Origin: Collimonas antrihumi
GTDB lineage: Bacteria > Pseudomonadota > Gammaproteobacteria > Burkholderiales > Burkholderiaceae_D
Assembly (NCBI RefSeq): GCF_018304965.1
Contig: NZ_JAGQED010000026.1
Span: forward strand, 1 to 63,882
Direction: 5' to 3'
Length of the DNA: 63,882 nt
A model generated the notes under the pieces. It saw nothing but the letters and a program-made list of their open reading frames with translations. It did not search any database and was not told where the DNA came from. Position 1 is the first letter of the stretch. Each line of letters opens with the position of its first letter. The translations under genes were made by a program, and so were the position numbers. Positions 3,154 to 21,056 of this stretch are shown here, in pieces.

Positions 3154-5883
3154 TTAATTACTCACCTTCACCTGATAAGTCACCACCGTCTGCCCTGTCG
3201 GCGCCAGCGTCCCTGCAAAAGTCCATTGCACGGCTCCTTGCCCGCCAGCCGCAGGTTGGCTCGAAACGGTGCATGCGGTCAAACTGGCTGGCAGGCTGGC
3301 TGGGCAATTTGCGAGGACATAATTGGTATACGACGGTGTCGCATCGCTGACGACAACGTTGTTGAGCGCCGCGCTACCATGGTTGGTGGCGGTGAGTTGG
3401 TATTCCAGCGTATCGCCAGGCAGTGCATTGCTGGCAGTGCCGAAGCTGCCGCTTTGCGTGAGATTGCGAACTTGTTTCAATAAGGCCAGCGCTGCGGGCG
3501 TACCTACGGTGGTGATGTCGTTATGTACCACCACGTTGGCCAGCGCCGGGCTGGCGTTGGTGTAAGTGAAATTGGCCGACACCGTGACGGTATTGGTCGC
3601 GTTCAGTGGTGCTGTGGCGGGAATGAATTCCTTGACGATCAGGCAAATTGTTTGCCCCGCCGTGACGGTGATGCTGGTCGCCGGTAGCAATATCGGATCG
3701 GTGCTGGCGATGGTAGCACTGCAAGCGGTATCGTTATAAATCGCTTCCACCCAGCCTGAGTTGGCGGCATTGACTGGATTGGCGATAGCAGCACTGGAAA
3801 ATTTTACTGTGCCACCGCTGCCGGCTACAAAAGTATGGGTATAAAACACGGTGCTGCCAGCTGGTGATGTTTGTGCGCCGTCTGTGCTGAAGTTGTTCAC
3901 CGGGACATTGGCAAAGTTGACGCCGCTGTAGCTGCTGCCGCTGGTGTAGGTGAAACTGGTGCCGTTGCTGGTAGCCGTCGTGCCGCGCGTGTAGGCGCCG
4001 CCAGTCGTACCGGCACTGCCGCCGGTGGCTATATAACCGGCCGGAAAAACTTCATTGATGGTGACAGGGTTGGTGACGGTCTGCGGGAGCACCAAAGTAT
4101 AACTGCCATTGCCGCCCGTGGTGGTGGTGGCAATCACCGTACTGCCAGACATCGCATTGATGGTGACATTGGGTATCCCGGCTTCACCGCCATTTTGTAT
4201 TCCATCATTGGCGACGCCACTGCCAACGCCAGTATCGGCAAACACCGTGCCGCTTAATCCAACGGTGCTATATAAGCCAAAATTTTGTGCCAACGGAGCG
4301 GTCGCGCCTATCGTCAGTTGACGAATTCCACTCACCGATTCACTCACTGCCCAACCGCTGGGAATAGCTGCCGTAGTATTCGGTAACGTGCTTTTATTGG
4401 TCAGGATCAAGCAGTAACTACCTTGCGGAACCAGTGGCAAAGCATACGTGCCATCAACGGCGCTGACCGCCGCCACCGCGGCCGGTGCGACACTGCTGCT
4501 TTGGCAAACGTTATTCACGGAGGGCGTCAACGTGACATATAAGCCACTCAATCCTGTTCCGACTTCGTTGTTGTCTTTTTGCGCGTTGCGATTCAGGTCG
4601 TTGTAAACCGTACCGCTGATGTTCGCCACCACCGCGGTATTAACGGTAGAGATATTATTGGCCGAATCGGTATCGCCAAAACCATTCGGCGGAATCACTT
4701 GGCCTGTATTGGTAATCGTCGTACCGATGGCAGTATTGGCAGCGATCGTGCCCGTCACTGTATAGGTAGCAACCGCACCGGAATTTAACGTCACTGTGCC
4801 GCTGATATTATTACCGCTGCCACTGGCGGTATTACAAGTGGCGCCGGCCGTGGTCGCCGCACAACTCCAGGTAACGCCGGTGATACTAGCCGGAACTGCA
4901 TCGATAATCGTTGCGGCGGTGGCTGTGGTACCGCCATTATTGCTGACTTTGAGGGTGTACGTAATCCGATCGCCCGGCAAGCCCTTGGCACCGGTAGGAT
5001 CGCTCGTGGTTGCTGCAGTTTTAACGATGCCGAGATCGCCGTTGACCATCGTAACAATCACATTGCGTAGCTCATGGACATTGTTGGAGCCGCCAGTGGA
5101 TCCGGCAAAACCAATCATGGCATTGGCAGGCAATGCCAGACCACTGACCGTCTGGGTAATCAAGTTCGAGAAGGTGCCATTCTGGGTCGTCATCCAATTG
5201 ACCGTGAACGTATATTTATTGTTACCCAGCGGCGTAATCTGCACCCGGACACGGCGATAATAACTATCCAGACTTGGGCGACTGCTTGACTGGGTTTTAT
5301 AATCGATAGGGGTTCCCGTCGTCTTTCCGCCCAGATAATCCCAGCCGCTACTGGCTGGCCCACGCAATACTACCGCCTCCGGTGCAGCACCAGGCCCGCC
5401 AGTTGTACACTTATCGCCGGGATTACTAAAATTGCCGTATTCATCCAAACCGACAGCGACCATCCCATAAGATAAACCGCAATATCCAAGACCACCACCG
5501 TAAAGGCCGTTATTGGCAAATGGCTGGGATGCATCGAACATGAACATGGTAAGGCCATCCGCGCCATTCCCTCCCCAACTCAAGTACTCAAAGTCAGCAA
5601 TGACGCCGGATGACGTTGGAAAGCTTTGGTTGTAATACGCATATCCCTGTTTGTTGCCTAAGGCATCTGTCAAGCGTAAATAACCCGTAGAAGCGCCGTC
5701 GGCACCGCTGGCGCCGGTATTATTATTCGGCCCTCCCGCAGTCAAACGTGCGGCGCCTCCCAAAACCCAGCCGGGGGCGCTGTTGGTCATGAAAGATTGG
5801 TTAATGGAGAGGAAGCCGGCATTGGCGGGAGATGAAACAAACAGTAATGCAAATGCCATCCAAAAAATTGAAATCAGGCGCAT
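3154..5883 (-). CDS. Secreted lectin-like / DUF11 repeat adhesin
   Basis: A 909-residue secreted protein with a Sec signal peptide (RLISIFWMAFALLFVSSPANA). Residues ~23-280 resemble bacterial L-type lectin domains (GADGLTMFMFD, GGGLGY, VGLDEYGNFSNPGD, and a final strand RNVIVTM). A DUF11-type domain follows (~284-405). Two SdrD/CNA-B-like modules come next (GTVYNDLNRNAQKDNNE near 425; a second near 545). Two more DUF11-like modules reach the C-terminus (TVVTYQVKVSN). No LPXTG, PEP-CTERM or barrel end is visible. The ATG shares its A with the TGA of the 2037-residue barrel gene (TGATG), so translation is coupled and the products probably act together. I infer a surface adhesin that binds glycans; the sugar cannot be told from sequence. 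Confidence 0.85.
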   Translation of the reverse strand: MRLISIFWMAFALLFVSSPANAGFLSINQSFMTNSAPGWVLGGAARLTAGGPNNNTGASGADGASTGYLRLTDALGNKQGYAYYNQSFPTSSGVIADFEYLSWGGNGADGLTMFMFDASQPFANNGLYGGGLGYCGLSYGMVAVGLDEYGNFSNPGDKCTTGGPGAAPEAVVLRGPASSGWDYLGGKTTGTPIDYKTQSSSRPSLDSYYRRVRVQITPLGNNKYTFTVNWMTTQNGTFSNLITQTVSGLALPANAMIGFAGSTGGSNNVHELRNVIVTMVNGDLGIVKTAATTSDPTGAKGLPGDRITYTLKVSNNGGTTATAATIIDAVPASITGVTWSCAATTAGATCNTASGSGNNISGTVTLNSGAVATYTVTGTIAANTAIGTTITNTGQVIPPNGFGDTDSANNISTVNTAVVANISGTVYNDLNRNAQKDNNEVGTGLSGLYVTLTPSVNNVCQSSSVAPAAVAAVSAVDGTYALPLVPQGSYCLILTNKSTLPNTTAAIPSGWAVSESVSGIRQLTIGATAPLAQNFGLYSTVGLSGTVFADTGVGSGVANDGIQNGGEAGIPNVTINAMSGSTVIATTTTGGNGSYTLVLPQTVTNPVTINEVFPAGYIATGGSAGTTGGAYTRGTTATSNGTSFTYTSGSSYSGVNFANVPVNNFSTDGAQTSPAGSTVFYTHTFVAGSGGTVKFSSAAIANPVNAANSGWVEAIYNDTACSATIASTDPILLPATSITVTAGQTICLIVKEFIPATAPLNATNTVTVSANFTYTNASPALANVVVHNDITTVGTPAALALLKQVRNLTQSGSFGTASNALPGDTLEYQLTATNHGSAALNNVVVSDATPSYTNYVLANCPASLPASLTACTVSSQPAAGGQGAVQWTFAGTLAPTGQTVVTYQVKVSN

Positions 5884-8800
5884 CAATTATTCCCCAGCGA
5901 AGTCAACGGCGCTTCTGCACCACGCTTGGCTTTAAATAGATTTTCATCAAATTTGAAACGCAAGCGCAGGAAAATGCCGCGTTGCGTATAGTCAGCGCCG
6001 GCCAGATCTTTATCGGTAAATCCAAGTACGTTGTAACCCACGGATGCCCACATGTTTTTTGTCACCAGATAGCCGACCTCGCCACCTATCGCGTTTTGAC
6101 GCGAAGTCGAACCGTTACCAAACATGGTGAACGCGGCAACCCCGACATCCCAACGTTTGTTAACGTCCAGGATTGCTCTGCCACCGACAATTTGCGTTGT
6201 ACCGCGACTTTGCAATCCATTGGAATTGTCGATGACATGTTTGATGCCATAACGTCCCGATAAAACAAGATCAGGGCTGGCTTGATAATTGATATTGGTC
6301 GATAAAATGTCAGCCGTTTCATCGACATCCATGCCAGTACCCAAGGTATTGTCCTGGTCACGTTTCAATTCCATCCGAAACAGTGCATTCAAGTCATCGT
6401 GTCCGACGGGTCGAAAGGCAAATCCGAGTTGCGCGCGGGCGATACGATGAGCGCCAGGCGTCGTGCCATTTTGCGCCAAATTCTGTTGCAGGCTAATCAA
6501 CCCCTTACTCAGGAATGTCCAGCTATCGTCTAGCTTAAAGGCTGCGCCGACCGAGCCAAGATAGCTATCGGTAGTAGTCGATTGACGCCACTCAGCGCGC
6601 GCGGAACCTTTCCAGTCTGGATTGGCGGTGTAATCAATCGCTGCTGTGAGCGCAGTCGATTTGTCAGTTGCTGCGCCGGCAATCGGCTTGATATTTTCTG
6701 CAGTGGTGGTGACACGCACACCCGGAGCGATACGCCACAAATTACGCAAACCCACGGCAGTTTCGGCCGTACGCCCATCAATCGCATCGGCGACGCGATA
6801 TTCGTTAAAAACATGGCCGTCTTTCATGTAATCGGTATCAATCCCGAATACAGTGGTGTTATTGCGCTCGGTCGACGACAGATCAACGGCACTGACTTGA
6901 TTGGCTAAAAACTCATGACGGAAATACAGGCGGCCGCCTACCGGCAAATTGTAAGTACCGCCGACAGAGACGATTTCACGGCCGCTGTCATCAATCGCAT
7001 GTTCATATTCGCCGTAAATGGTAGCCGCTGGCAAAAACGGTACCGGCATCGACAATTTGGCACGCAAACTGGTGTAATGCACATTGCCGTTAAGAGCGCC
7101 GCCTAAGGTCGGCAGGCCTGCTGCTAGCGTTTCCGACGATGCGCTACCATTCTTGATACCGGTTTCCAGTTTCATATTGTTAGGCAAGCTGTGTTCCAGC
7201 GTCACATTGCCACTTTGCTGTACCGCTTGCGTAGTTTCATTCTCACTGCGAATGGCGTCGAGTACGATGCGATTATTTTCATCGATGCGATACGCCGCCT
7301 TAGCGCCATATTCAGCACGGCCATTGTTTAACAGCGCATCGGTATTACTAAACGCAACGTCGGTCTTTCCTTCATACAAACGCACTTGCAGTTGCTGGCT
7401 TTCATGCTTGAATTCGACCCGTTGAGCAGTACCGGAGCCTTCAACATCGGCGTCGGTTTTGGCAACTTCACCGGTCAACGCGGTTTTTTCCGAGAACTTA
7501 TAGGTAAAGTTAGTTGCGCTGAGCGTTTTGCGATCTTGTGGATTGCCGTCGTGGATAGCCACACCGCCAACCGTTAAATCTTGCGTCAACTGATAACTGG
7601 CAGCACCGCCACCGACCCAGAATTTTTGACCGCCGTTATCGACTTCATAAATAATCTTGATCGAGATCGGGTTCAGATCGGCATCAAGACTTGGCACTGG
7701 CGCTTTGAACAATATCTGACCGGTCAACGGCTCAATTTCATAATCCACAAAGCGCGCCAGCATCACATCGCTGAGGATGATCGCGGTTTGATAACGATCG
7801 CGCGTCAAGATATGCACTTGCTCGCTGTTCACCAAGCCGCTGCTGTTACTAAGTTGATACGGGCCGGAAGTGCCATTGCCGCGAATTTCATTGGTGACCT
7901 GTGTGGAACTGGTATAGCTGGCAAAACCGTCGGCTTTAAGAGGGCCTTGATCAATATGGCCACGAACGCCGTTGAGCGCCCGATTGTATTGACTCAAGGT
8001 ACGCGCAGGATCGGTGCTTTGCGTGCTGAAATCACCATACATCGCATACGACATACCGCGATCTAAACGCGCATATAGACGTTTGGTTGATTGCGCGTCA
8101 AATGCACGTTCGGACGAATCGCCATACACCGGATAAAACTGCTCCGGCTGAATATCGCGGAACAAAACTTGATCGCCGGGCTTATCGGAGTCGTAGGATA
8201 ACGTCAGCAAAGTGCTGTCGTTGATTTTCCCTTTAAGGAACATCGCAGCACGCGAAGCTGCAGTGGCTTTGCCGTTATCAAAACTCTGCGAAGACGATAC
8301 GATTTCGCGTTCAAAGGTGTCGCCGCTTTGGGTCGGCGATAATGCATTCGGATTCAAATTACGCAAGTTCAGCACACCTTCCAGTAAACCTGCCGCCAAC
8401 ATGGGGCGCAGTTCTGGCATGAAGTCCAGCTTGGCTTCATTATGAACGATCCCGCTGCTTACTTTGATTTCGGCACTACCGGCAACGTTCGGCGGCAGCA
8501 AGGTAAAACTGGCTTTTCCGCCTTCTACCATCACATTCATCAACTGCAATAGCTGCTGCGACTGCGGCAAATTGGCACTTTTTGTCATCAGGCTGGCATC
8601 CTCAACGGCTTGCCATTGCCCCAAAGTACTAGCCAATGTCACCGCGGTTCGCGCCGTCACTGGCGTACCATCTTTATCGGTCAAATGAATCTGTACCGAC
8701 ACCGCGCTACGGCCATCGGCGCTGGCTTGTTTCGGGATGTCTATATTGATGTGCGCCAGATTACCCGGCGCCATCACATGCACGGTCGCGCTACCGCGTT

Positions 8801-11800
8801 GATTGCCAAAATTATCGGCAGCCGCAACAGTCAGGGTGTTCACGCCCGCTTTCAAATTGACGCCGATATATTCCCATGCGGTGACGCCCTGATGTTCTGC
8901 ACTGGCAGGTAGCGAACTTTGTTGCCCCACCTGTTTCATCTCCACTGCCACACCGTTGACGGTCAAATGCAACTGCGCGCCCAATGCGCCTTTTACCCGC
9001 ACCATGGTTTGCGCGGCGGCCAATATTTGGCCTTCTTGTAAATTGATGAAGGCAACATTAGCGTCAAGATTTGGCAACAGACTTTCCAGTGATGCTACCG
9101 GATTGGCCGTGTCCAATGCTGTAGATGGCGTCGGTGTCGACGACACTTGCGCCATTTGCTCCGCAGATAATGGCGTCACCAGATTCGAAGATGCTGTCGG
9201 CGCATTGTTGCCAGTTGCACTCGAAATTCCTTTTGCATCCAGTTTGCCCGATGCTGGCAAGGTGCGCGGATCAGCAGTTACCGTAGTGGTGGCTGTCAGC
9301 AATGCGCGTGCGGCAGAGGTAGTTTCAGTCGGCATATTCGCATCTTTTAGTGCGGCATGGCGGTTGGCTATTTCAGCGCGAATATCATCGGTGCAATTGG
9401 ACAAAGCGAAATCGGCTTTATGCAGTTCGCCGTTTTTCAGATCAAGGAAACGGCTGCCCGGATCACCGGCATTCCGGTTGGCCAGCACCTCCAGCATTGC
9501 GCCGGCAGGTAAGGTAATCGGATCTACTTTAGCCACATGCGTGCGCGCCAGCAAACCATACAAGCTGTACTTACCTTCTTCATCGGTAGTGGCGCTGGTG
9601 CCATCTTCTAAAAAAATACGCACACCTGGAATACCGGGTTCATCGCCATCTTGTTGTCGATTGGCGTTACAGTCGGCATAGACCTTACCGATCAGATAAG
9701 CACGATCAGAGAACACGCCGCCTTGAGAAATCTGTACCTTGACGCTGGCCTGATTCGATTTGATAACGCTTGCACCAAGGCCTGCGCTCGCTTGTGCACG
9801 GTTGACGCCATCGCCTTGCTGCGCGCCGGGACCTACACGCAAACGGTAAGTCAACACCACCTGGGTATTGCTGCCGATTGCACCCACTGCAAAATTCAAC
9901 GCGGAACCAGATGCGCCGCCGTAACTTACCGGATTGGCCATCACAGCGCCATTCAAGCGCGCGGTTCCGCGCTGAAAGCTAAAACCGGCCGGTAAATTAT
10001 CGGCCACCTGCACATTCGACACCGGACCTTTTCCGGTATTTTTGATAGTGATGCTGTAATCCACAAAATCACCGATCTCTACCAAACTTTTTGACGCGCT
10101 TTTTTCAATAAACAAGCTATTCGTCGTGGCAGCAGCGCCAGGATCAAGTGGCACATCAAAGACCCACGAGGCTTGTGATCTCACCTGGAAATCACTACCA
10201 AACGACGCAGTCAGGTTAATCGTGCGCGATGGCGGTAATGCGCTGACAGATACTTTGGATGGGAACGAATAACCAGCTGGCGGCGTCACCACCACTTTGT
10301 ATGTCACGCCGGCGCTATAAGCTGCTGCCAGCTGCGGAAAGGAGAAACTACCGTCAATGCCGGTGATTACACTATTCGGAACAGATACGCCATTGACGAT
10401 GACAGAGCTTGCCGCCGAGCCGGCAACGCCACCGGACGGATTGCTGATATCAATTAACTGCACCGTGGCGCCAGAAATAGGCTTGTTGGTTTTGCTATCG
10501 AAGATCACGCCGGAAGGTTGCACCAGAATTTCCGCACCGGCCTTGTTACCGCAACCGATCGCAGTCGCAGTGATAACATCGTTTTTTAACGTTTGCAGAA
10601 TGCCATCGCCAGCAATGATGGAATGCGTTGAAGCATCGATGGTAGGCACATTCGGCATGATGCGGAACACCCCTGTATTGATCCCGGTTTCAGTGGCAAT
10701 GAAGTTTTCAACGTCACCGGTCAACTTGCTATTCAATTGCACTGCTACGGTGTTTATCTTGTTGGGAATGATCTTGCATTGCGATGCTGTTACCTGCACA
10801 AACAAAGGCACACCCAGATCAGATTGGGGTAGCGTGCTGCTATAGTCGGGATTGTAAAAATTCACTGCTGGCGGTTTCGCCGGCAAAGCCAGTTGCACCG
10901 CGTTCGATGCAATGCTGGTGGTGACATTGGAAGCAACGCTGGCGTCAACATAATCGGCATAGGCCGTATTGTTGATCGAACCGCTGGCGCTGGTTAAGAC
11001 CGTGACACTGAAACTGCCGCTTAATTGTGCGCCGCTGGCTAAACTCGGCACGCCCCAGGCGACGACATCGATATCGGCTAGCGCCGGTGCGACTGTGACA
11101 TAGCGCCCGACAGGGTCGCCCAGCTTGTGATACAACACCGTCGCAATGCCGCTGGCGCCATTCGCAACAATGCCGGCAAAAGTTGTATTCGCCGGAATAT
11201 GGTCACGCAATAAAAATAGCGCCGTGCTGTTGCCGTCAACGGTTACGGCCACTGGGGCTGCCACCATATTGCCGTTATTCATCACGTGCAAGTCGTAGGT
11301 GATAGCACCGCCGGGCAGCGGGGTTGTGGTGGAAGCTCTCTTGTTGACCACCAGCGATGCGCCGTTACCGATGGTGATCGTATCGGTATTGCTGACCGTG
11401 ACGTTTTGGGTTTGACTGGTAGCCGTCAGTTGCAACTGCGTCGCCAAGCCAAGCGCAATATTAGTGGGCGGTACATTACCGCTGACGAGTATCGCGATAC
11501 TGGCGCCTGGCGCCAACGTAACCGTGCCGCCATTAGCAATCACGGCTTCACCCGGATCAGGTAGGCCATTGCCATTTTGATCGTTGATCAAATTCAGATT
11601 GATTAAATTGAAACTGCCGCCGGCAACAGGCGTCAATTTAATGGTGTAAGTGCCGATGAAATTACTGTTGTTGGTCAAGCGGTGCGCCAACACCACCTGT
11701 GCGCCGGCAGAACGCAACAGGCTTTGATCACTGGTCAAACTGATTATTTCTTGCGGCTGTACGATAGCGCGCACACGCAATGAAGTGAGCGTCACCGGTA

Positions 11801-11996
11801 GCTGACTGGCGCTATCAACGTAAAATGTTTTGGCGTAACTATCAATGACACTTCCCGCAGGCACCATTGACGCCGATGCATTCGCCATACCCGCGCACCA
11901 ACACCACAGCATCAACAAAATCATCGATACAGTCGTCGATGATAATGCCAGTCTGTGTGCGGTGTTACGCAGCAGTGAACGGCGTGGCGGTTTCAA
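5883..11996 (-). CDS. Giant DUF11/SdrD/Ig-like protein with C-terminal outer-membrane beta-barrel
   Basis: 2037 residues. It begins at a TTG (no in-frame ATG before the upstream stop) with a basic N-region and a long hydrophobic signal segment ending near ANASA. Approximate order: DUF11-like module 214-350; a carboxypeptidase-regulatory/CNA-B-like fold 492-575; DUF11 module 626-755; SdrD-type module 768-840 (YADCNANRQQDGDEPGIPG); Ser/Thr/Ala-rich linker 880-975; two Ig-like modules 975-1195, the second like the Big-1 domains of invasins. From ~1200 to ~2025 there are alternating amphipathic strands (MFLKGKIND, RLYARLDRGMSYAMYGDFST, YFRHEFLANQVSAVDL, GIFLRLRFKFDENLF) typical of an outer-membrane barrel. 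A hydrophilic 16-residue tail follows the last strand, unusual for a barrel. It may anchor or export the lectin protein encoded directly after it. Confidence 0.85.
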   Translation of the reverse strand: MKPPRRSLLRNTAHRLALSSTTVSMILLMLWCWCAGMANASASMVPAGSVIDSYAKTFYVDSASQLPVTLTSLRVRAIVQPQEIISLTSDQSLLRSAGAQVVLAHRLTNNSNFIGTYTIKLTPVAGGSFNLINLNLINDQNGNGLPDPGEAVIANGGTVTLAPGASIAILVSGNVPPTNIALGLATQLQLTATSQTQNVTVSNTDTITIGNGASLVVNKRASTTTPLPGGAITYDLHVMNNGNMVAAPVAVTVDGNSTALFLLRDHIPANTTFAGIVANGASGIATVLYHKLGDPVGRYVTVAPALADIDVVAWGVPSLASGAQLSGSFSVTVLTSASGSINNTAYADYVDASVASNVTTSIASNAVQLALPAKPPAVNFYNPDYSSTLPQSDLGVPLFVQVTASQCKIIPNKINTVAVQLNSKLTGDVENFIATETGINTGVFRIMPNVPTIDASTHSIIAGDGILQTLKNDVITATAIGCGNKAGAEILVQPSGVIFDSKTNKPISGATVQLIDISNPSGGVAGSAASSVIVNGVSVPNSVITGIDGSFSFPQLAAAYSAGVTYKVVVTPPAGYSFPSKVSVSALPPSRTINLTASFGSDFQVRSQASWVFDVPLDPGAAATTNSLFIEKSASKSLVEIGDFVDYSITIKNTGKGPVSNVQVADNLPAGFSFQRGTARLNGAVMANPVSYGGASGSALNFAVGAIGSNTQVVLTYRLRVGPGAQQGDGVNRAQASAGLGASVIKSNQASVKVQISQGGVFSDRAYLIGKVYADCNANRQQDGDEPGIPGVRIFLEDGTSATTDEEGKYSLYGLLARTHVAKVDPITLPAGAMLEVLANRNAGDPGSRFLDLKNGELHKADFALSNCTDDIRAEIANRHAALKDANMPTETTSAARALLTATTTVTADPRTLPASGKLDAKGISSATGNNAPTASSNLVTPLSAEQMAQVSSTPTPSTALDTANPVASLESLLPNLDANVAFINLQEGQILAAAQTMVRVKGALGAQLHLTVNGVAVEMKQVGQQSSLPASAEHQGVTAWEYIGVNLKAGVNTLTVAAADNFGNQRGSATVHVMAPGNLAHINIDIPKQASADGRSAVSVQIHLTDKDGTPVTARTAVTLASTLGQWQAVEDASLMTKSANLPQSQQLLQLMNVMVEGGKASFTLLPPNVAGSAEIKVSSGIVHNEAKLDFMPELRPMLAAGLLEGVLNLRNLNPNALSPTQSGDTFEREIVSSSQSFDNGKATAASRAAMFLKGKINDSTLLTLSYDSDKPGDQVLFRDIQPEQFYPVYGDSSERAFDAQSTKRLYARLDRGMSYAMYGDFSTQSTDPARTLSQYNRALNGVRGHIDQGPLKADGFASYTSSTQVTNEIRGNGTSGPYQLSNSSGLVNSEQVHILTRDRYQTAIILSDVMLARFVDYEIEPLTGQILFKAPVPSLDADLNPISIKIIYEVDNGGQKFWVGGGAASYQLTQDLTVGGVAIHDGNPQDRKTLSATNFTYKFSEKTALTGEVAKTDADVEGSGTAQRVEFKHESQQLQVRLYEGKTDVAFSNTDALLNNGRAEYGAKAAYRIDENNRIVLDAIRSENETTQAVQQSGNVTLEHSLPNNMKLETGIKNGSASSETLAAGLPTLGGALNGNVHYTSLRAKLSMPVPFLPAATIYGEYEHAIDDSGREIVSVGGTYNLPVGGRLYFRHEFLANQVSAVDLSSTERNNTTVFGIDTDYMKDGHVFNEYRVADAIDGRTAETAVGLRNLWRIAPGVRVTTTAENIKPIAGAATDKSTALTAAIDYTANPDWKGSARAEWRQSTTTDSYLGSVGAAFKLDDSWTFLSKGLISLQQNLAQNGTTPGAHRIARAQLGFAFRPVGHDDLNALFRMELKRDQDNTLGTGMDVDETADILSTNINYQASPDLVLSGRYGIKHVIDNSNGLQSRGTTQIVGGRAILDVNKRWDVGVAAFTMFGNGSTSRQNAIGGEVGYLVTKNMWASVGYNVLGFTDKDLAGADYTQRGIFLRLRFKFDENLFKAKRGAEAPLTSLGNN

Positions 11997-12070
11997 GGTG
12001 AAAACTTTTTCAGAAAATGAGATGCATACAGGTGCTAACGCTTACCAAAAAATCCTTTGCAAGAGTTTCA

Positions 12071-12102
12071 GGTAAAAGAAAACCCACGACATCAACGTCG
12101 TG
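12071..12102 (-). terminator. Probable intrinsic terminator between two DUF11 genes
   Basis: On the minus strand CACGAC-GTTGAT-GTCGTG is followed by GGTTTTCTTTT, a short stem with a T-rich tail. It lies between the 897-residue gene and the 2037-residue gene, so the downstream pair may be transcribed separately or at a reduced level. Confidence 0.55.
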
Positions 12103-12125
12103 ACGAACATCATGACTAAAGAATC

Positions 12126-12148
12126 GGGGCAGCACGAATGGCTGCCCC
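12126..12148 (-). terminator. Strong GC hairpin after the 897-residue DUF11 gene
   Basis: GGGGCAGC-loop-GCTGCCCC forms an 8-bp GC stem about 75 bp past the stop codon. The tail on the minus strand (GATTCTTTAG) is only weakly T-rich, so this may be a 3' protective or pausing hairpin acting with the second hairpin at 12071-12102. Confidence 0.5.
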
Positions 12149-12175
12149 TGTGCGACTTAGATCAAAATCAAATTT

Positions 12176-12227
12176 GCATCAATATTTCGCATCAATATTT
12201 TGCATTGATACTTCACACTGATACTTA
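12176..12227. repeat. Four-copy 13-bp tandem repeat at a gene end
   Basis: GCATCAATATTTC, GCATCAATATTTT, GCATTGATACTTC and ACACTGATACTTA lie head to tail. The last unit contains the stop codon of the minus-strand DUF11 gene. The array has no open frame of its own and looks like a small minisatellite. Confidence 0.8.
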
Positions 12228-14918
12228 TTGAGCGATCTTGACTTCAAACGTCACCACTGCCGATGCACCTGGAATCAAGGTACCGACGGTAGCGGAAACA
12301 GTGCCAACCGAGCCAACAGTTGGCGCAGTGATGGTGCCGACCGTGGTTGCAGCACCACCCTGATACACGGTGTAAGCCGGAGTAGAGTCAGATACCGCAA
12401 CGCTGGTGGCGTTAGCAGAACCAACGTTGGTCACTGTGATCTGATAACCGATACATGCACCCGGCACTGCACCAGTAGTGATGTTGGCCGCGGTGTATGT
12501 CATGGCAGGATTGGTGCAATTTGCATCCAATGCTTGCTGTTTCACAATCGAGACATTACCGGCGATGACACTGGTCGAATCAGTTGCCGTCGCTGCTGCA
12601 GGTATCGTTGTAGTGTACGTACCGTTGCTGGTAGTAACAGTTACTGTCGTCGCATTGATACTGCCAGGCGCTGAACCCGATGGTGCGGTGACTTTTTCCA
12701 GAATCGTAATCGACGCACCTGGCGCCAAACCAGCGGCCAATGCAGCGATGTTATTGATGCCGCCTGCAGGAACTATAGGATCGTTAGCCGCAATCACACC
12801 GCTGTTGTTGGCGTCGTAATACTGCACCGAAGTCCAGTTTGCCTGGTTATTAGTGCTAGCCAACACGATGGTGCTGAGCGTGCCGTTACCTTCAGTGACG
12901 TTACCGGCATTGGTCAATGTGTGCGAGTAAACCACGATGCCGCCTGGATAAACCTGACCCGAATTGTTTGGTGAGAAAGTGAGTGAACGCACTGCACTGA
13001 TCGTCAAATTATCGTGAATGATGTCAACAGCGCCAGTCGATGGCGATTGTACGCGGAAGTAAAGATCATTCGCGCCAGCAGCTGCGCCGGAACCCGTTGC
13101 AGGAACCGTCACTGCAGCACAATACGCAAAACTGGCGCCGGCATTGACTACGCCGGTATTCGTAATGGTAGCGCCTGCAGCAGCACAGCTACCGGCAGTA
13201 AAAGTGACAGTCCAGCCAGTTGGCAAGCTTGAAGTGGCAAAGGTTGATGAAGTGCTGGCTGCCAGATTGTAAGTATCCGCAACACCACTGGTGTTGTTCG
13301 CATACAGCGTGAAATTGCTCGTGCCATTTGGAGCGATGGTGTTTGTCACCACTGGTGATGCTTCCGGGCCTGCACCGGTACCCAAGGCACCGCCAGAACC
13401 TTTGGCCGCATTATTGGTCACATCGACTGTGACTGCTGCGATGGCATTCAAGGTATCTGCGCCAGTGTTGGTCTTGGTTGAATCAAACACGGAAGTCGCC
13501 GTTTTGTTGACCGAGAACGGACCAGCGCCGGAAGCATTCGTTGGCAATGTCGCTTTCAAGATCACGTTATAACTTGCGCCTGCCGCCAATGGTCCGGTAT
13601 CAGGAACGCCATCGCCATTTGTATCGACCAGCGGTGTAACACCATCAGCTTTAAACAGTTGGAAAGTGGTTCCGGCCGGGAAAGCACCAGTACTTGGGTT
13701 GGTGTAAGTAATGTTGAAAGTGTCAGTGCCGTTACCAGTATTTTTAATCACGTTGACGAAACTGATGCTTGCCCCCGGATTAGCCGATACCACTGCTGCC
13801 GGCGGTGTCAACGTCACGCCACCAGTTTGTCCCACGGTGAAAGGGACTGTGTTGGTATTACCGGTAACCGTTGCGCCAGAACCGTCGTTATACGACACAT
13901 TGGCGATGTTATTGATCACACCCGGTGGTTGTGAAGCCGCCACATTGACTTTGAATGTCAATGTGCCTGATTGACCTGGTGTCACTTGCGCCAGGGTAGC
14001 TGTGATAGTCGTACCTGTGACGCTATAGTCAATCGTGTTCGGTGCCGTACCTTGTACGTCACCGGTAGCATCCGTCAAGACCGTAGCGCCTGTAACCGAC
14101 CACAAACCAGAACCTGCAACGTAAGTCAAACCGGCTGGAATCGCGTCTGTCAATTTGACAGCCGTCGCGGTGCTGTTACCGGTGTTGGTATAGCTCAAAG
14201 TGTAAGTGTAAGGACCGCTGCCCGCTGCACCACTGGCGGCGCTCACCGATTTGGTGACGTTAATGACCGCATTGGTCGACACCGTCGTCACGTCAGTAAC
14301 CGAAGCCGTTTGCGCTGGCGCAAACGTGCTGGTACCGGTAACGGTCATGGTGTTTGTGCTGGCAGTTGTTGCTGTCGCTGGCACTGTGCCGGCGACCACA
14401 AACTTGAATACAGCACCTGCCGCCAGGACGCCGGTTGACGTCAACGCCGGACCGGTTGGTTGACCGGAGCCATTGTCAGCAAAAATCTGTAAATTAGTCA
14501 GATTGAATGCGCCGCTGGTGTTAACGTTGGCCAGGTTATACGTATCGCTACCGTTACCTGTATTGGTCAACGTTTGCGGGTAATAAACTGTGCTGCCAGG
14601 CGCCGAAGTTTTTGCACCGTTGGCTGTCAAAGTCAAGCTGGCAACCTGTTGCACGATGGTTGACACGGTATTCGATGTCACTGTGCGTGAAGTGCCGGAG
14701 CCATCGGTGTACGAAGCAGAAGCCTGGTTACCAATGGAAGTGCCGGCCGCTGGAGCTGCCGCATGGGCCAGATTAGGAATTGTCAGTGCAACAGTCAACG
14801 TCGCCAGCGTGGCGAGTGCGGCGAATCGTGAAGAACTGCGTAAAAAACGTTGAGCTTTGGCGACGCTTTGACGCCAAAAAGCCTTATTACTAGGGCTGCT
14901 ATCAGGGCATGTATTCAT
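12225..14918 (-). CDS. Secreted multi-repeat DUF11 surface protein
   Basis: 897 residues from the ATG at 14918; a TTG 33 bp upstream is possible but less likely. The long N-terminal leader (basic stretch, then RFAALATLATLTVALTIPNLAHA) is a Sec signal peptide cut after AHA. The mature chain is about six beta-sandwich modules of the DUF11/NEW3 type, each with a [YF]xxxxxNTGNxxD/A signature (for example TLTNTGNGSDTYNL, LSYTNTGNSTATAVKLTDAIPAG, NTGNGTDTFNI, LTNAGNVTEGNG, VTNVGSANATSVAVSDSTPAY). It is very rich in Ala, Thr, Gly and Asn and almost free of Cys. The last module ends at the C-terminus with AVVTFEVKIAQ, close to the lectin protein's ending. No anchor motif is seen. Probably an extracellular filament-like or surface-coat protein; function inferred only from family. 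Confidence 0.85.
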   Translation of the reverse strand: MNTCPDSSPSNKAFWRQSVAKAQRFLRSSSRFAALATLATLTVALTIPNLAHAAAPAAGTSIGNQASASYTDGSGTSRTVTSNTVSTIVQQVASLTLTANGAKTSAPGSTVYYPQTLTNTGNGSDTYNLANVNTSGAFNLTNLQIFADNGSGQPTGPALTSTGVLAAGAVFKFVVAGTVPATATTASTNTMTVTGTSTFAPAQTASVTDVTTVSTNAVINVTKSVSAASGAAGSGPYTYTLSYTNTGNSTATAVKLTDAIPAGLTYVAGSGLWSVTGATVLTDATGDVQGTAPNTIDYSVTGTTITATLAQVTPGQSGTLTFKVNVAASQPPGVINNIANVSYNDGSGATVTGNTNTVPFTVGQTGGVTLTPPAAVVSANPGASISFVNVIKNTGNGTDTFNITYTNPSTGAFPAGTTFQLFKADGVTPLVDTNGDGVPDTGPLAAGASYNVILKATLPTNASGAGPFSVNKTATSVFDSTKTNTGADTLNAIAAVTVDVTNNAAKGSGGALGTGAGPEASPVVTNTIAPNGTSNFTLYANNTSGVADTYNLAASTSSTFATSSLPTGWTVTFTAGSCAAAGATITNTGVVNAGASFAYCAAVTVPATGSGAAAGANDLYFRVQSPSTGAVDIIHDNLTISAVRSLTFSPNNSGQVYPGGIVVYSHTLTNAGNVTEGNGTLSTIVLASTNNQANWTSVQYYDANNSGVIAANDPIVPAGGINNIAALAAGLAPGASITILEKVTAPSGSAPGSINATTVTVTTSNGTYTTTIPAAATATDSTSVIAGNVSIVKQQALDANCTNPAMTYTAANITTGAVPGACIGYQITVTNVGSANATSVAVSDSTPAYTVYQGGAATTVGTITAPTVGSVGTVSATVGTLIPGASAVVTFEVKIAQ

Positions 14919-15211
14919 GATTGATATGGATAGTAAAATATTGAAATGCAAAGGTATTGCGACTTTTGATTTTTATTGCTGTTTTAACTTTGCGTCGCAC
15001 CAGATTACAAACATGATCCCCGGCAGATACCCGCAACAGCACACGACACGAAGCCACGAATGGTTCGTGATAGAGGCAGTTTGAATATTGCGAGAACGAT
15101 TTGCGGTAAAGGTGCAAGACTAGATAACGGATATGCCACGTTTTGCTCCTCTTCCTCGCTTGCGGGAGAGAGAAACTTATCCTTTATTTAGCCGCCAGCG
15201 ACGCTTCGGGC

Positions 15212-15772
15212 TTACTTTTGCGCCTGCACCTGCGACGGCACAGGATTGATGCGTACCCGCAAACTCACCAGCATCTCTTTACCAGCTGCCAGTTGTCCCA
15301 GATTCCAACGCAGAGCACGATATTCTGCGGTAGGCACCAGTTCTTGCTTTTCCTTACCGTCGGCAGATTTCACCACACGCTTTAACGGCATGGCAGCAAA
15401 ACTGACGCCATCCAAAGATGCTTGCGGGGTACCGGAATTGGTCGACTTTGCAGTGCCATCCAGATAGGCAGCACCGGCGGGAATAGGCAACACGGCGACG
15501 AGACTATTGACCCCGCTATTGCCTTTATTGACGTAACGGGTGCGATATTCGACCACGTCACCAGGACCGGCTTTGTCAGCCGATTTCAGTTGCTCACCGT
15601 TAGCGCCGGCTTCAACGCGATTGGCACTTAATTGAGACTCGATTTGAGATTGAGAAGCAGCCGACGATGTCGCTGCGGTGGCATTGACTGCCATTGCTGG
15701 TGTAACAAATGCTGACAGAAGTAACGACAGCATCACTGCAGACCACGCATACCAGTTCTTTACGTTAAACAT
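15212..15772 (-). CDS. Small secreted single-domain DUF11-like protein
   Basis: 186 residues. A clear signal peptide (NWYAWSAVMLSLLLSAFVTPAMA) precedes a Ser/Ala/Gln-rich spacer. One DUF11-like domain follows (GDVVEYRTRYVNKGNSGVNS, then VLPIPAGAAYLDGTA), ending LVSLRVRINPVP plus a short tail. The ATG follows a strong AGAGGGGAG ribosome site, so it is probably the best translated gene of the cluster. It is first in the minus-strand series, directly below the AT-rich leader. A small subunit or cap for the larger DUF11 proteins is a reasonable guess. Confidence 0.8.
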   Translation of the reverse strand: MFNVKNWYAWSAVMLSLLLSAFVTPAMAVNATAATSSAASQSQIESQLSANRVEAGANGEQLKSADKAGPGDVVEYRTRYVNKGNSGVNSLVAVLPIPAGAAYLDGTAKSTNSGTPQASLDGVSFAAMPLKRVVKSADGKEKQELVPTAEYRALRWNLGQLAAGKEMLVSLRVRINPVPSQVQAQK

Positions 15773-18861: not shown

Positions 18862-19066
18862 TTGATCTCGCCAAAAATCTTGCTGAAATGGTGCTGCACT
18901 ATGACTAGTGTACCCAAGAAACGGGGAAAAAATGAGCAGATGCAGATACTGCGCCCGGATCAACGTCTGGAAATCGGGGTGGCTGTAAGAAAAACCTCAC
19001 AATTCCTTAAAGGAACTAGGTTAATTTCAGGGAAGTTTGTATGATTCTCTCCCGACTCTCTCCATT

Positions 19067-20011
19067 ATGCTGCCCTCACCAGACAAACCCATGTTCGCAA
19101 AAATCCACGCAGTTGCACAGCAAGTCGGTCAGATCGTCGTCGGCAAGGATCACCAGATCCGCCAGGCATTGGTGTGCTTGCTGGCGGGCGGCCATCTCCT
19201 GATTGAGGATGTGCCCGGTGTCGGCAAGACCACCTTGGCGCATGCGCTTGCCATTTCCTTAGGGCTGCGCTTCAATCGACTGCAATTTACCAGCGATCTG
19301 CTGCCGGCGGACGTGGTGGGAATTTCGGTTTTCGACCGCGAAAAAAGCAGTTTTGTGTTTCACCCGGGGCCGGTGTTCACTCAGGTGCTGCTGGCCGACG
19401 AAATCAATCGGGCCACGCCCAAGACGCAGTCGGCGCTGCTGGAAGCGATGGAGGAACGCCAGGTCACCGCCGAAGGTGTCACGCGCGACCTGCCGGAACC
19501 GTTCTTCGTCATCGCCACCCAAAATCCGGCCCATCAGGTTGGTACCTTTGCCCTGCCCGAGTCGCAACTGGACCGCTTCCTGATGTGCTTGTCGCTGGGG
19601 TATCCGGACGCCACCGCAGAACGCGCGTTGCTGATGGGGGAAGATCGCCGCATCTTGTTGAAATCCATCGCCCCGATGATGCAAGCCACTGAATTAATCG
19701 AAGCCAGGCTGGCATTGAAGCAGATCCATACTTCAGCCTCATTGATCGATTACATACAGGCGCTGGCGCATGCTTCGCGCCAAAATGGCTTGTTTGCAGA
19801 AGGCATGAGTCCGCGCGCCGCAATCGCATTGCTGCAGGCGGCCAGGGCCTGGGCTGCCATGGAGGGCCGCAACCATGTCATTCCCGAAGATGTCCAGGCG
19901 GTATTGGTGCCTGTGACAGCGCATCGCCTGCGCCCGCTGAAAGCGCACGCAGGCAGCACTCTTGGCGCCCGTGATCTGGTCTTGCAGTTGATGAAGTCGG
20001 TCGCGGTCTGA
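19067..20011 (+). CDS. MoxR-family AAA+ ATPase
   Basis: About 314 residues. Walker A (GVGKTTLAHALA), Walker B (VLLADEINRATPKTQSALLEAMEE) and the C-terminal lid domain with HVIPEDVQAV are all present, as in MoxR chaperone ATPases. The start is uncertain: ATG 19067 and ATG 19091 are both possible, and a TTG at 19037 extends the frame. It is followed by DUF58 and transglutaminase genes, the standard partners of MoxR, and probably helps assemble or activate them at the membrane. Confidence 0.92.
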   Translation: MLPSPDKPMFAKIHAVAQQVGQIVVGKDHQIRQALVCLLAGGHLLIEDVPGVGKTTLAHALAISLGLRFNRLQFTSDLLPADVVGISVFDREKSSFVFHPGPVFTQVLLADEINRATPKTQSALLEAMEERQVTAEGVTRDLPEPFFVIATQNPAHQVGTFALPESQLDRFLMCLSLGYPDATAERALLMGEDRRILLKSIAPMMQATELIEARLALKQIHTSASLIDYIQALAHASRQNGLFAEGMSPRAAIALLQAARAWAAMEGRNHVIPEDVQAVLVPVTAHRLRPLKAHAGSTLGARDLVLQLMKSVAV

Positions 20012-20054
20012 ACTGCTAATCGCTCTTTTTTTCAATCAGTCTGCGACGGCCACC

Positions 20055-21056
20055 ATGCTGACATCTCTGCGCAAACGATTCCGGGATTGGCTGGATCGCT
20101 CCTTGTTCCAGCTGCGCGATGCCGAACCGGGAGAGGTTTTTCTCACTCAGCGGCGCGTCTTCATCGTGCCGAGCCGGCCCGGACTGGCTTTTGCCGTCAT
20201 GCTGGTATTGCTGTTCTTATGTTCCATCAATTACAACCTGAGCCTTGGCTTTGGCTTGACCTTCCTGCTGGCTGCCTGCGCTGTCATCGACATGCACCTG
20301 ACTTTCCGTAACCTGGCTTATTTACATCTGACCGCCGGCAAGGTAGCTGCGGTATTTGCCGGCGAAGATGCGCTGTTCGAGCTGCATCTGGCGAACCGGC
20401 GCAAGCATACCCGTTATGCCATCTGGCTTGGCTTCATTGGACGTGGCTTGCCTGCCATGGAACGGGCGACCGATGTTTCAGCCCATAGCACCAGCCATCT
20501 GACACTGGCGATCACTACCACCCGTCGCGGCTGGCAGCCGGCACCCAGGATACGTCTGCAAACCCGCTTTCCGCTGGGCTTGCTGCGCGCCTGGAGTTAC
20601 TGGCAACCGGATTGCAAAGCCCTGGTCTACCCGCAGCCGGAAGCCTCGGCATCGACCCCGCCGTTGCCGCTGGCGCCGATCGAAAGAAGCGATGGCAACG
20701 GCGTCGCCGGGCATCAGGATTTTGCCGGGATCCGGACCTATCAAAGCGGCGACTCGCTGAAACACCTGGCCTGGCGCCAAATCGCCAGGCTGGATACCGA
20801 TCTCGACCCCAAGCTGATCACCAAGCAGTTCGAAGGCGGCGCGGTCAGCGATTTGTCGATTGATTTTGAGTCGCTGCCTTACGACATGGCGCTGGAAGAC
20901 AAACTCTCGCGCATGACGCGCTGGATACTCGAAGCGGAAGCGCGCCAGCTGCCGTATGCGTTCCGCCTGGGCGACACCATCCATGCAGCAGCGCTGGGAC
21001 CGGCCCATCAGCGCGCCTGCCTGCGCGCGCTGGCGCTGTACCAAGGTGCGCCATGA
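20055..21056 (+). CDS. DUF58 domain membrane protein
   Basis: 333 residues. Two adjacent membrane segments lie near residues 40-85 (GLAFAVMLVLLFLCSINYNL and LTFLLAACAVIDMHL). A long soluble part follows, carrying the DUF58 core (GVAGHQDFAGIRTYQSGDSL, then HLAWRQIARL), which resembles a von Willebrand A-type fold. It shares a 4-bp ATGA overlap with tgpA. MoxR-DUF58-TgpA sets are common in proteobacteria; the DUF58 role is not established. Confidence 0.92.
   Translation: MLTSLRKRFRDWLDRSLFQLRDAEPGEVFLTQRRVFIVPSRPGLAFAVMLVLLFLCSINYNLSLGFGLTFLLAACAVIDMHLTFRNLAYLHLTAGKVAAVFAGEDALFELHLANRRKHTRYAIWLGFIGRGLPAMERATDVSAHSTSHLTLAITTTRRGWQPAPRIRLQTRFPLGLLRAWSYWQPDCKALVYPQPEASASTPPLPLAPIERSDGNGVAGHQDFAGIRTYQSGDSLKHLAWRQIARLDTDLDPKLITKQFEGGAVSDLSIDFESLPYDMALEDKLSRMTRWILEAEARQLPYAFRLGDTIHAAALGPAHQRACLRALALYQGAP

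What the first reader, a model, noticed from the sequence alone, without database searches (positions are those of the whole stretch)
3154..15772. Four-gene DUF11 / lectin / beta-barrel surface cluster
Four consecutive minus-strand genes all have Sec signals and are built mainly of DUF11-type beta-sandwich modules. They range from one domain (186 aa) to over 2000 aa, where an outer-membrane barrel is added, and one member carries a lectin-like head. No sortase, exosortase, T1SS, TPS or usher gene lies in or next to the cluster, so how the proteins are exported and anchored is open. The barrel protein itself is the obvious candidate for anchor or translocator of the other three. I do not know of a described system with this layout.
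Basis: partly seen in the sequence, partly recalled or inferred. Interest (0 to 1): 0.72.

Follow-up and report, generated by a model that had tools for sequence, protein, structure and literature searches.

The report
Surface chain joined by split domains
Four neighbouring genes, kept together in bacteria of several phyla, seem to encode a surface chain whose separate proteins snap together because each carries half of one folded domain, possibly locking by a self-made chemical bond.

Summary
The four genes are real, and they form a conserved set: A (186 aa), B (908), C (2037, predicted barrel) and D (910, L-type lectin head). Among 80 named relatives of C, A and B lie upstream in 53 of 53 loci with enough flank, and a D in 45 of 53. 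Besides many Betaproteobacteria the records are labelled Gamma- and Deltaproteobacteria, Verrucomicrobia, Nitrospirae, Acidobacteria and Balneolaceae.

The key feature was not in the finding. B and D end in a DUF11 (CLIPPER) domain cut off before its last two strands (62/62 B, 47/48 D). B and C begin, just after the signal peptide, with that missing hairpin; D and A almost never do. The cut domains keep the isopeptide Lys and Asp (B 61/62 each, D 45/45), and the hairpins the Asn (B 55/56, C 59/66). Joining tail to hairpin raises complete-domain scores. Uncut DUF11 giants of related loci lack both features (0/15).

Best reading: D docks on B and B on C, giving a lectin-tipped chain on an outer-membrane anchor. 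Complementation is well supported by sequence; covalency, barrel closure and export are inferred. The AlphaFold barrel job did not finish.

The parts
15212..15772 (-). gene A, 186 aa: secreted single DUF11-like domain without the last hairpin, without the catalytic Asp and without an N-terminal hairpin; proposed reversible cap or chaperone for the hairpins (function inferred)
   Evidence: A upstream of C in 53 of 53 loci with enough flank; Asp position 0 of 60, mostly Leu
12225..14951 (-). gene B, 908 aa (probable ATG start at 14918): shaft protein = orphan hairpin + 5 DUF11-like stretches + cut-off terminal DUF11
   Evidence: domain map; AlphaFold model mean pLDDT 88.0, pTM 0.54
14643..14756 (-). 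B N-terminal hairpin ('tag'), residues 66-103, homologous to the last two strands of complete DUF11 domains; Asn75
   Evidence: model positions 93-129 of 131 matched at residues 62-101, 10.0 bits; best conserved 38-aa window of B, rank 1 of 805; Asn in 55 of 56
12228..12563 (-). B terminal DUF11 ('catcher'), residues 797-908, lacking the last two strands; Lys804, Asp855
   Evidence: ends at model position 94-98 of 131 in 62 of 62 B proteins; Lys 61/62, Asp 61/62
5883..11996 (-). gene C, 2037 aa: N-terminal hairpin, DUF11, SpaA-like, SdrD_B and Ig-like domains, then predicted outer-membrane barrel
   Evidence: conserved barrel region in alignments A1 and A2
11745..11861 (-). C N-terminal hairpin ('tag'), residues 46-84; the Asn position is Ser53 in this strain
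   Evidence: 64 of 69 C proteins at >=5 bits; Asn 59 of 66, window Ser
9729..10121 (-). C internal complete DUF11 (residues 626-756), region shared with the giant proteins of the split (type II) loci
5931..8399 (-). C predicted beta-barrel (about residues 1200-2022); closure not tested
   Evidence: OmpA domain fused after it in L050, L119, L133, L146
3154..5886 (-). gene D, 910 aa: tip adhesin, variable head plus SdrD_B region and cut-off terminal DUF11
5035..5886 (-). D head, residues 1-284: L-type lectin-like domain (signal peptide included)
   Evidence: PF18483 E=1.3e-9, below curated cut-off
3157..3498 (-). D terminal DUF11 ('catcher'), residues 797-910, lacking the last two strands; Lys804, Asp848
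   Evidence: ends at model position 89-99 in 47 of 48 D; Lys and Asp 45 of 45 after three unclear D were dropped, both invariant in 27 of 27

Best explanation
The genes encode a surface chain assembled by split DUF11/CLIPPER domains. C is the base, a predicted outer-membrane barrel with its hairpin at the N-terminus. B is a shaft piece with a hairpin at the N-terminus and a cut-off domain at the C-terminus. D is the tip, with a lectin or other adhesive head and a cut-off domain at the C-terminus. The hairpin of one protein completes the cut-off domain of the next (donor-hairpin complementation), so D docks on B and B on C or on another B. Read from the tip, the chain D-B-C has the layout of the single-polypeptide giants found in relatives, as if one long protein had been cut in the loop before strand 8 of a DUF11. 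Because the cut-off domains keep the isopeptide Lys and Asp and the hairpins keep the Asn, the joint probably seals itself with a Lys-Asn bond without any enzyme. In this strain the C hairpin has Ser instead, so here the B-C joint is probably non-covalent. A may cap or chaperone the hairpins reversibly. Shown: gene-set conservation, the end grammar, residue conservation and the rebuilt-domain scores. Inferred: physical docking, bond formation, order, surface location, role of A.
For: End grammar: terminal DUF11 stops at model position 94-98 of 131 in 62/62 B and 89-99 in 47/48 D. N-terminal hairpin >=5 bits in 56/62 B, 2/48 D, 1/60 A, 28/2620 shuffles; with a model built from the B hairpins, C 64/69, D 1/48, A 0/60, shuffles of C 5/1380. 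Residues: Lys and Asp 61/62 each in B and 45/45 in D; Asn 55/56 B and 59/66 C. Joined tail+hairpin gains >=3 bits on a complete-domain model: D+B 38/39 (median 12.1), B+B 56/56, B+C 61/62, D+C 40/42; random windows 56/390, 95/560, 106/620, 56/420; shuffled hairpins 36/390, 42/560, 51/620, 42/420. Two of Pfam's sister models agree in part: with the B hairpin DUF7507 rises 21.0 to 28.5 (B) and 33.9 to 39.4 (D), DUF7927 19.3 to 23.0 and 28.3 to 31.5 with the alignment reaching position 121 of 132. Loop length (medians): 10 residues inside 232 intact domains; 8 (50 B) and 10 (43 C) mature residues before the Asn. The hairpin is the best conserved window of B (rank 1 of 805). Family loci read separately: hairpin in 12/12 B, 12/12 C, 0/11 D; cut-off ends 12/12 B, 11/11 D; uncut giants 0/15 for both. 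Genes together in 53/53 (A, B) and 45/53 (D); A beside the window's type of C 14/14. In the AlphaFold model of B the hairpin is ordered (pLDDT 89-95).
Against: No structure of a complex: the tools fold single chains and give no coordinates, so what the B hairpin packs on in the model is unknown. With Pfam's own PF01345 the B hairpin adds almost nothing (D 32.4 to 33.3, B 33.8 to 33.8 bits), and a control join of D's tail to D's own lectin head scored higher (34.2), though its alignment stops at position 86 while the hairpin join reaches 100; the window's C hairpin hardly helps with any Pfam model. The window's C has Ser at the Asn position, as do 4 other C hairpins; two more have Ala. Two Asn-less hairpins occur together in L114 although its B keeps Lys and Asp. 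C co-variation with the tails is weak (tagC-catB partial r 0.11). One genome has a lone A (G419, L174), and 10 of 32 class-wide A places are on contigs without a C hit. Eight of 53 loci show no D by the strict rule; in five of them the downstream frame runs off the fetched piece.
Confidence: 0.68

Rival explanations
1. The split domains pair, but only by strand complementation; Lys, Asp and Asn are conserved for folding, and no intermolecular isopeptide bond forms.
For: The window's C hairpin has Ser instead of Asn; 63 of 232 intact internal domains also lack at least one residue of the triad.
Against: Near-invariant Lys, Asp and Asn on opposite sides of the gap; the same triad forms the bond in 9IFR (PMC12617251, section 8 read).
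Confidence: 0.2
2. The cut-off C-terminal DUF11 is a secretion or docking signal recognised by the C barrel (like the T9SS C-terminal domain, recalled), and the N-terminal hairpins of B and C do something else.
For: A, B and D end in such a domain, and B and D travel with the barrel.
Against: Does not explain why B and C start with the missing part and D does not, nor the rebuilt-domain scores.
Confidence: 0.12
3. The hairpin of B folds back on B's own terminal domain, so B is a closed monomer and the four proteins are separate adhesins that are merely co-transcribed.
For: B carries both halves; the hairpin is ordered in the monomer model.
Against: C has only the hairpin and D only the cut-off domain; some relatives have a second hairpin-plus-catcher protein beside the same C (L168-L170; in L169 that protein is cut by the end of the piece).
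Confidence: 0.08
4. Ordinary set of fibrillar adhesins with DUF11 stalks; the end pattern is a by-product of how DUF11 boundaries are drawn.
For: DUF11 stalks occur in many Gram-negative adhesins (PMC12617251 passages) and DUF11 is a listed stalk domain (PMC9210967 passages).
Against: Fifteen uncut DUF11 giants of the same family show neither feature; internal domains of the same proteins are complete.
Confidence: 0.05

Closest known systems
DUF11 / CLIPPER fibrillar adhesins (Pfam PF01345; PDB 9IFR from an Acinetobacter silvestris adhesin, PMC12617251)
   Same: Same domain family, same Lys-Asp-Asn chemistry, Gram-negative surface stalks; the A. silvestris adhesin also has an OmpA-like anchor domain.
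   Different: There each domain is complete, the bond is within one chain and the anchor is in the same protein; here the domain is divided between two gene products and the anchor is a separate barrel protein.
Chaperone-usher pili (recalled)
   Same: Subunits with an incomplete Ig-like domain completed by the neighbour; outer-membrane base; adhesin at the tip.
   Different: No usher or PapD-type chaperone hit among the 10 flanking ORFs scanned; donor is a two-strand hairpin; subunits are large multi-domain rods; potential covalent seal.
Archaeal thread of Sulfolobus acidocaldarius, Saci_0406 (PMC9715654, passages read)
   Same: Head-to-tail donor-strand complementation plus a proposed intermolecular isopeptide bond, no known enzyme.
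   Different: Archaeal, one main small subunit, no Pfam domain, bond from Asn57 to the N-terminal Asp24 amino group two subunits away; no outer-membrane barrel.
Engineered Tag/Catcher pairs from split isopeptide domains (recalled; PMC5487036 and PMC8878318 seen in a search listing only)
   Same: A domain split so that Lys and Asn or Asp lie on separate pieces that recombine covalently.
   Different: Those are man-made; this would be a natural version used to build a surface chain.
[not shown]
   Same: CnaA-like shaft domains, covalent polymers.
   Different: Joined by sortase at LPXTG motifs (recalled); here no sortase hit in the flanking ORFs scanned and no such motif at the ends.

Membership tests
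DUF11/CLIPPER fibrillar adhesin | tandem DUF11 domains above the curated cut-off | tested here: met
   B, C, D above PF01345 cut-off; A below it
DUF11/CLIPPER fibrillar adhesin | N-terminal adhesive head distal to the anchor | tested here: inconclusive
   D head matches PF18483 at E=1.3e-9 but below its curated cut-off; binding not tested. Other D proteins contain CshA_NR2, Beta_helix, SpaA families
DUF11/CLIPPER fibrillar adhesin | anchor in the same chain | tested here: not met
   B and D end in a cut-off DUF11; no known anchor family among the hits of B and D or of 27 D proteins
Chaperone-usher pili | usher barrel and PapD-like chaperone genes | tested here: not met
   no such Pfam hit in C or in the 10 flanking ORFs scanned; rest of the genome not scanned
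Chaperone-usher pili | incomplete Ig-like subunits completed by a neighbour's N-terminal segment | tested here: inconclusive
   sequence supports it; no complex seen
Sortase-assembled pili | LPXTG-type C-terminus and sortase gene | tested here: not met
   C-termini read; no sortase in the 10 flanking ORFs; rest of the genome not scanned
Type V autotransporters | passenger followed by a C-terminal barrel in one chain | tested here: inconclusive
   C has this order; barrel about 800 aa; no autotransporter family hit; barrel model not finished
Type IX secretion | SprA/PorK-N machinery and CTD signal | not tested
   genome not searched for T9SS genes
Archaeal threads | Saci_0406 homology | not tested
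   only the paper's passages were read

The most novel reading that the evidence does not exclude
A natural, enzyme-free Tag/Catcher assembly system of Gram-negative bacteria: DUF11 domains split between genes lock secreted proteins into a covalent chain on an outer-membrane barrel, B can polymerise head to tail to set fibre length, exchangeable D proteins give different tips, and A is a reversible cap lacking the catalytic Asp.
Probability: 0.35. Interest if true: 0.95.

Novelty: categorically new. Interest (0 to 1): 0.85.

Why it matters
It would be a surface-assembly route with no sortase, usher or chaperone gene in the cluster, present in records labelled as several phyla, whose genes carry only generic names such as 'DUF11 domain-containing protein' in the annotated records seen here. 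It predicts which protein end binds which, down to three residues, so it can be tested with two purified pieces. It would also be a natural source of new covalent tag/catcher pairs, and it offers an answer to how DUF11 proteins without any anchor motif stay on a Gram-negative cell.

Tried and rejected
Considered and dropped: (1) 'Oxalobacteraceae-specific cluster': refuted. (2) 'Barrel gene merely a neighbour': argued against by loci where a related barrel is a separate gene directly after a DUF11 giant (type II, own genome contig C11, L039) and by co-occurrence. (3) 'A is a small copy of B or D': A lacks the hairpin and the Asp. Joining hairpins to A is a mixed result: median change -0.2 and 0.2 bits, but >=3 bits in 22 of 56 (B hairpin) and 18 of 58 (C hairpin), against 46 of 560 and 45 of 580 random windows and 100 of 560 and 73 of 580 shuffled hairpins, so A may or may not accept hairpins. 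(4) Natural B-C fusions as direct proof: the five long barrel ORFs looked at (L162-L166) are uncut chains without hairpins, not B-C fusions. (5) Sequence search of the PDB for the D terminal domain and A: nothing useful. (6) Counting barrel strands from amphipathicity: the Ig-like part scored as high as the barrel part (0.92 against 0.90), so the count is worthless. (7) A first regular expression for the Lys was mis-specified (22 of 62 and 12 of 48); redone on alignments. The regex is unspecific (629 of 2200 background windows) and is not used; a crude regex for the Asn (50 of 56 B, 36 of 66 C) was replaced by the model alignment. (8) Gene maps by longest or GC-scored ORF missed or displaced genes at some loci; the tally uses profiles instead. 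The tally (53 of 80 with A, B and D) mis-framed L086. (9) Distance-matrix co-variation (36 loci): tagB-catD partial r 0.31, tagB-catB 0.41 (0 of 999 permutations each), tagC-catB 0.11 (100 of 999), tagC-catD 0.19 (10 of 999). Such permutation tests are lenient; treated as a hint only. (10) Structure search: pdb_via on the B model covers mostly residues 103-504; the absence of matches to the hairpin or terminal domain there means nothing. (11) Two proteins between C and D in L113 and L116 gave no Pfam hit and stay unassigned.

Rows dropped: L092, L094, L123 from the D residue counts (their downstream ORF is not a clear D); L061, a thirteenth family locus cut by its contig end, was not, and the D of L050 is cut there. 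B proteins cut by contig ends or with a wrong start stay in the 62. Loop lengths could be measured for 50 of 56 B and 43 of 66 C. All 80 named loci are the best 80 of 427 relatives found, so they are biased towards close relatives of the query.

Literature: searches in an open-access library without bioRxiv; no listed title or abstract start was about split DUF11 domains. Subscription papers are not covered. PMC11952670, the only paper with both 'DUF11' and 'donor strand', was seen in the listing only.
Full report
What is there. The C and D frames overlap by a few bases. On the upstream side lie a YlqF-type GTPase and a histone-deacetylase-like gene, on the downstream side a methionine ABC transporter. 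No sortase, usher, chaperone or known secretion gene was seen among the ten flanking ORFs scanned. DUF11 passes the Pfam cut-off in B, C and D and is weak in A. D's first 284 residues match the L-type lectin family (E=1.3e-9, below its curated cut-off).

Conservation. A search with C in 145 genomes of the family gave 28 genomes with relatives at E<=1e-10. Reading about 20 kb around them showed different layouts. Type I, as in the window: A, B, C with fused barrel, D. Type II: a DUF11 giant of about 1500-3100 aa followed by a separate barrel gene of about 1100-1200 aa; in the window's own genome, on another contig (L039), an OmpA gene follows, and genes of similar size follow in several other loci (not scanned). 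Type III: a more distant giant plus a barrel protein, in the one case scanned with an N-terminal OmpA domain (L065). In the class-wide sample there are also single chains of 2579-3729 aa with the barrel fused and no hairpin (L162-L166). A barrel that is fused in some loci and separate in others is classical evidence that DUF11 array and barrel work together. The profile of A hits 14 of the 145 genomes at full length, in each case within about 10 kb of a C of the window's type (in G134 the contig ends before the barrel), and none of the 14 genomes with only types II or III (searches compared by eye). Class-wide, 22 of 32 A places of 49 bits or more lie on the same contig as a C hit within about 10 kb; the other 10 lie on contigs without one (searches compared by eye). 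Two of those 10 were read: G373 has A followed by B-like frames on a 4.4-kb contig, G419 has A alone.

Named relatives. One scan of genomes of 84,980 species found 427 relatives of the barrel; the best 80 were kept. Besides many Betaproteobacteria the records are labelled Gammaproteobacteria, Geobacteraceae/Desulfuromonadales, Nitrospirae, Verrucomicrobia/Opitutae, Acidobacteria and Balneolaceae (several are MAGs, so labels may err). With profiles, 53 of 80 loci have at least 3.4 kb upstream and 3.0 kb downstream of C: A and B are present in 53 of 53, and a D with a cut-off terminal DUF11 in 45 of 53. Of the eight others (L094, L095, L096, L098, L114, L118, L119, L121), five have a downstream frame running off the fetched piece. 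In the same 53 a hairpin above 8 bits is found on B in 52, on C in 43 and on D in none. Of 60 loci with enough upstream DNA, 59 have A and B. D lengths run from about 550 aa to frames of more than 3000 aa that run off the piece; in many D the last 600 or so residues resemble the window's, in the shortest only the terminal domain does, and the front varies. Families found in 27 D proteins include CshA_NR2, Beta_helix, HYDIN-type Ig and SpaA arrays. Between C and D some loci have an OmpA-domain gene (Pfam-confirmed in L089, L095, L100, L118, L127), or the OmpA domain is fused to the end of C (L119, L133, L146, L050); the gap genes of L113 and L116 gave no hit. From what is known of OmpA domains, this places the C-terminus of C in the periplasm.

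The split domain. B and D stop at the same point inside a DUF11. With a model built from internal domains only (131 positions), the terminal domain ends at position 94-98 in 62 of 62 B and 89-99 in 47 of 48 D. What is missing is the last two strands, which in the crystal structure 9IFR correspond to strands 8 and 9, with the isopeptide Asn before the last strand (PMC12617251, section 8; strand 8 for the Asn is my reading). Directly after the signal peptide B begins with those two strands: 56 of 62 B score at least 5 bits with a model of just that part, against 2 of 48 D, 1 of 60 A and 28 of 2620 shuffled N-termini. C is more diverged: 31 of 69 by that model, but 64 of 69 by a model made from the B hairpins (62 at 10 bits or more), against 1 of 48 D, 0 of 60 A and 5 of 1380 shuffles. 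In the window, B reads as hairpin (62-101), five DUF11-like stretches (5.7 to 97.7 bits), and a cut-off domain (827-907).

Residues. In 9IFR the bond joins Lys715 and Asn806 with Asp748 as presumed catalyst. The corresponding Lys and Asp are kept in the cut-off domains: 61 of 62 and 61 of 62 in B, 45 of 45 and 45 of 45 in D after three unclear D were dropped; in 27 D proteins both are among seven invariant columns. The Asn is kept in 55 of 56 B hairpins and 59 of 66 C hairpins; the window's C has Ser. In A the Asp position is never Asp (0 of 60). In intact internal domains all three are present in 169 of 232. The hairpin is the best conserved 38-residue window of B (rank 1 of 805).

Rebuilding the domain. 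Putting a tail and a hairpin of the same locus end to end raises the complete-domain score by at least 3 bits in 38 of 39 (D+B, median 12.1), 56 of 56 (B+B), 61 of 62 (B+C) and 40 of 42 (D+C). Random 40-residue windows of the same locus do so in 56 of 390, 95 of 560, 106 of 620 and 56 of 420, shuffled hairpins in 36 of 390, 42 of 560, 51 of 620 and 42 of 420. Pfam's own models agree only in part, for the window's sequences: with the B hairpin DUF7507 rises from 21.0 to 28.5 (B) and 33.9 to 39.4 bits (D) and DUF7927 by 3 to 4 bits, but PF01345 hardly moves (33.8 to 33.8; 32.4 to 33.3), and a control with D's own lectin head gives PF01345 34.2 without extending the alignment (position 86 against 100). 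The window's C hairpin hardly helps. The loop matches: a median of 10 residues from strand 7 to the Asn in 232 intact domains, against 8 (50 B) or 10 (43 C) residues before the Asn in the mature hairpins plus about one residue after the matched part of the tails.

Controls. Twelve type I loci of the window's family, read separately, give the same pattern: hairpin in 12 of 12 B, 12 of 12 C and 0 of 11 D; cut-off end in 12 of 12 B and 11 of 11 D. Fifteen uncut giants (nine of type II, counting L134, and six of type III) have neither (0 of 15 at 5 bits, best 4.5; last DUF11 complete in each, to position 116 or further). Some class-wide loci carry a second protein with hairpin and cut-off domain next to C (L168-L170), which fits a kit of exchangeable links.

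Mechanism. The simplest account is a chain: D's cut-off end takes B's hairpin, and B's cut-off end takes C's hairpin (or another B's). In N-to-C order the chain head-D-B-C-barrel then has the layout of the one-piece chains, which is expected if one long protein was cut in the strand 7-8 loop and each new piece received a signal peptide. Whether the joint is covalent is inferred from the triad. How B and D cross the outer membrane (through C's barrel, with C, or otherwise) is not known. A, with an acceptor-like fold but no catalyst and no hairpin, could hold hairpins reversibly; this is a guess, and the joined scores for A are mixed.

Novelty. The principle of strand donation is known from usher pili (recalled) and archaeal threads (PMC9715654, passages), and split isopeptide domains are known as engineered tools (recalled; listings). 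A natural system of this kind on DUF11 with an outer-membrane barrel base was not found in nine literature searches of an open-access library. The rating 'categorically new' concerns the system; it rests on computation alone.

Noticed in passing
own genome, contig C11 (L039:5219-16096): A second, split system: a 2108-aa DUF11 giant, a separate 1162-aa barrel protein and a 358-aa OmpA protein in overlapping order, without A, hairpin or cut-off ends.
   Followed up: partly
window 11838-11840 (C residue 53): The Asn position of the C hairpin is Ser here while the near relative L083 (Glaciimonas soli) has Asn; the B-C joint may be non-covalent in this strain.
   Followed up: partly
L065:5732-10336 and alignment (L064-L068): Distant barrel proteins carry an OmpA-like peptidoglycan-binding domain in front of the barrel (Pfam-confirmed for L065 only), others behind it (L050).
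   Followed up: partly
L050:2-5821: D-position protein with ten SpaA-type repeats (PF20674, PF24514), running off the fetched piece.
   Followed up: no
L160 (Acinetobacter haemolyticus plasmid p4): The set A, B, C, OmpA, D sits on a mobilizable plasmid next to a transposase; B is annotated there as several short CDS.
   Followed up: partly
L161 (Pacificitalea manganoxidans plasmid): An alphaproteobacterial plasmid has A, B and C with hairpins on B and C, but no D seen within about 9 kb downstream.
   Followed up: no
L168, L169, L170: Loci with two hairpin-bearing shaft proteins around one C, as if the chain had an extra link (the second one of L169 is cut by the end of the piece).
   Followed up: partly
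B residues 812 and 833 (window numbering): Two cysteines in the B terminal domain are conserved (56 of 62 and 59 of 62), possibly a disulfide; they are not among the conserved columns of D's terminal domain.
   Followed up: no
L097 and L134 (same MAG, RBC049): One metagenome-assembled genome holds both the four-gene type and the split giant-plus-barrel type.
   Followed up: no
G419:C8:90637-91125 (L174): A lone A-like gene without B, C or D seen within the 20 kb fetched.
   Followed up: no
window 19037-24348: MoxR-type AAA ATPase, unassigned 333-aa ORF, TgpA-type transglutaminase and MltB genes in a row, apparently unrelated to the finding.
   Followed up: no
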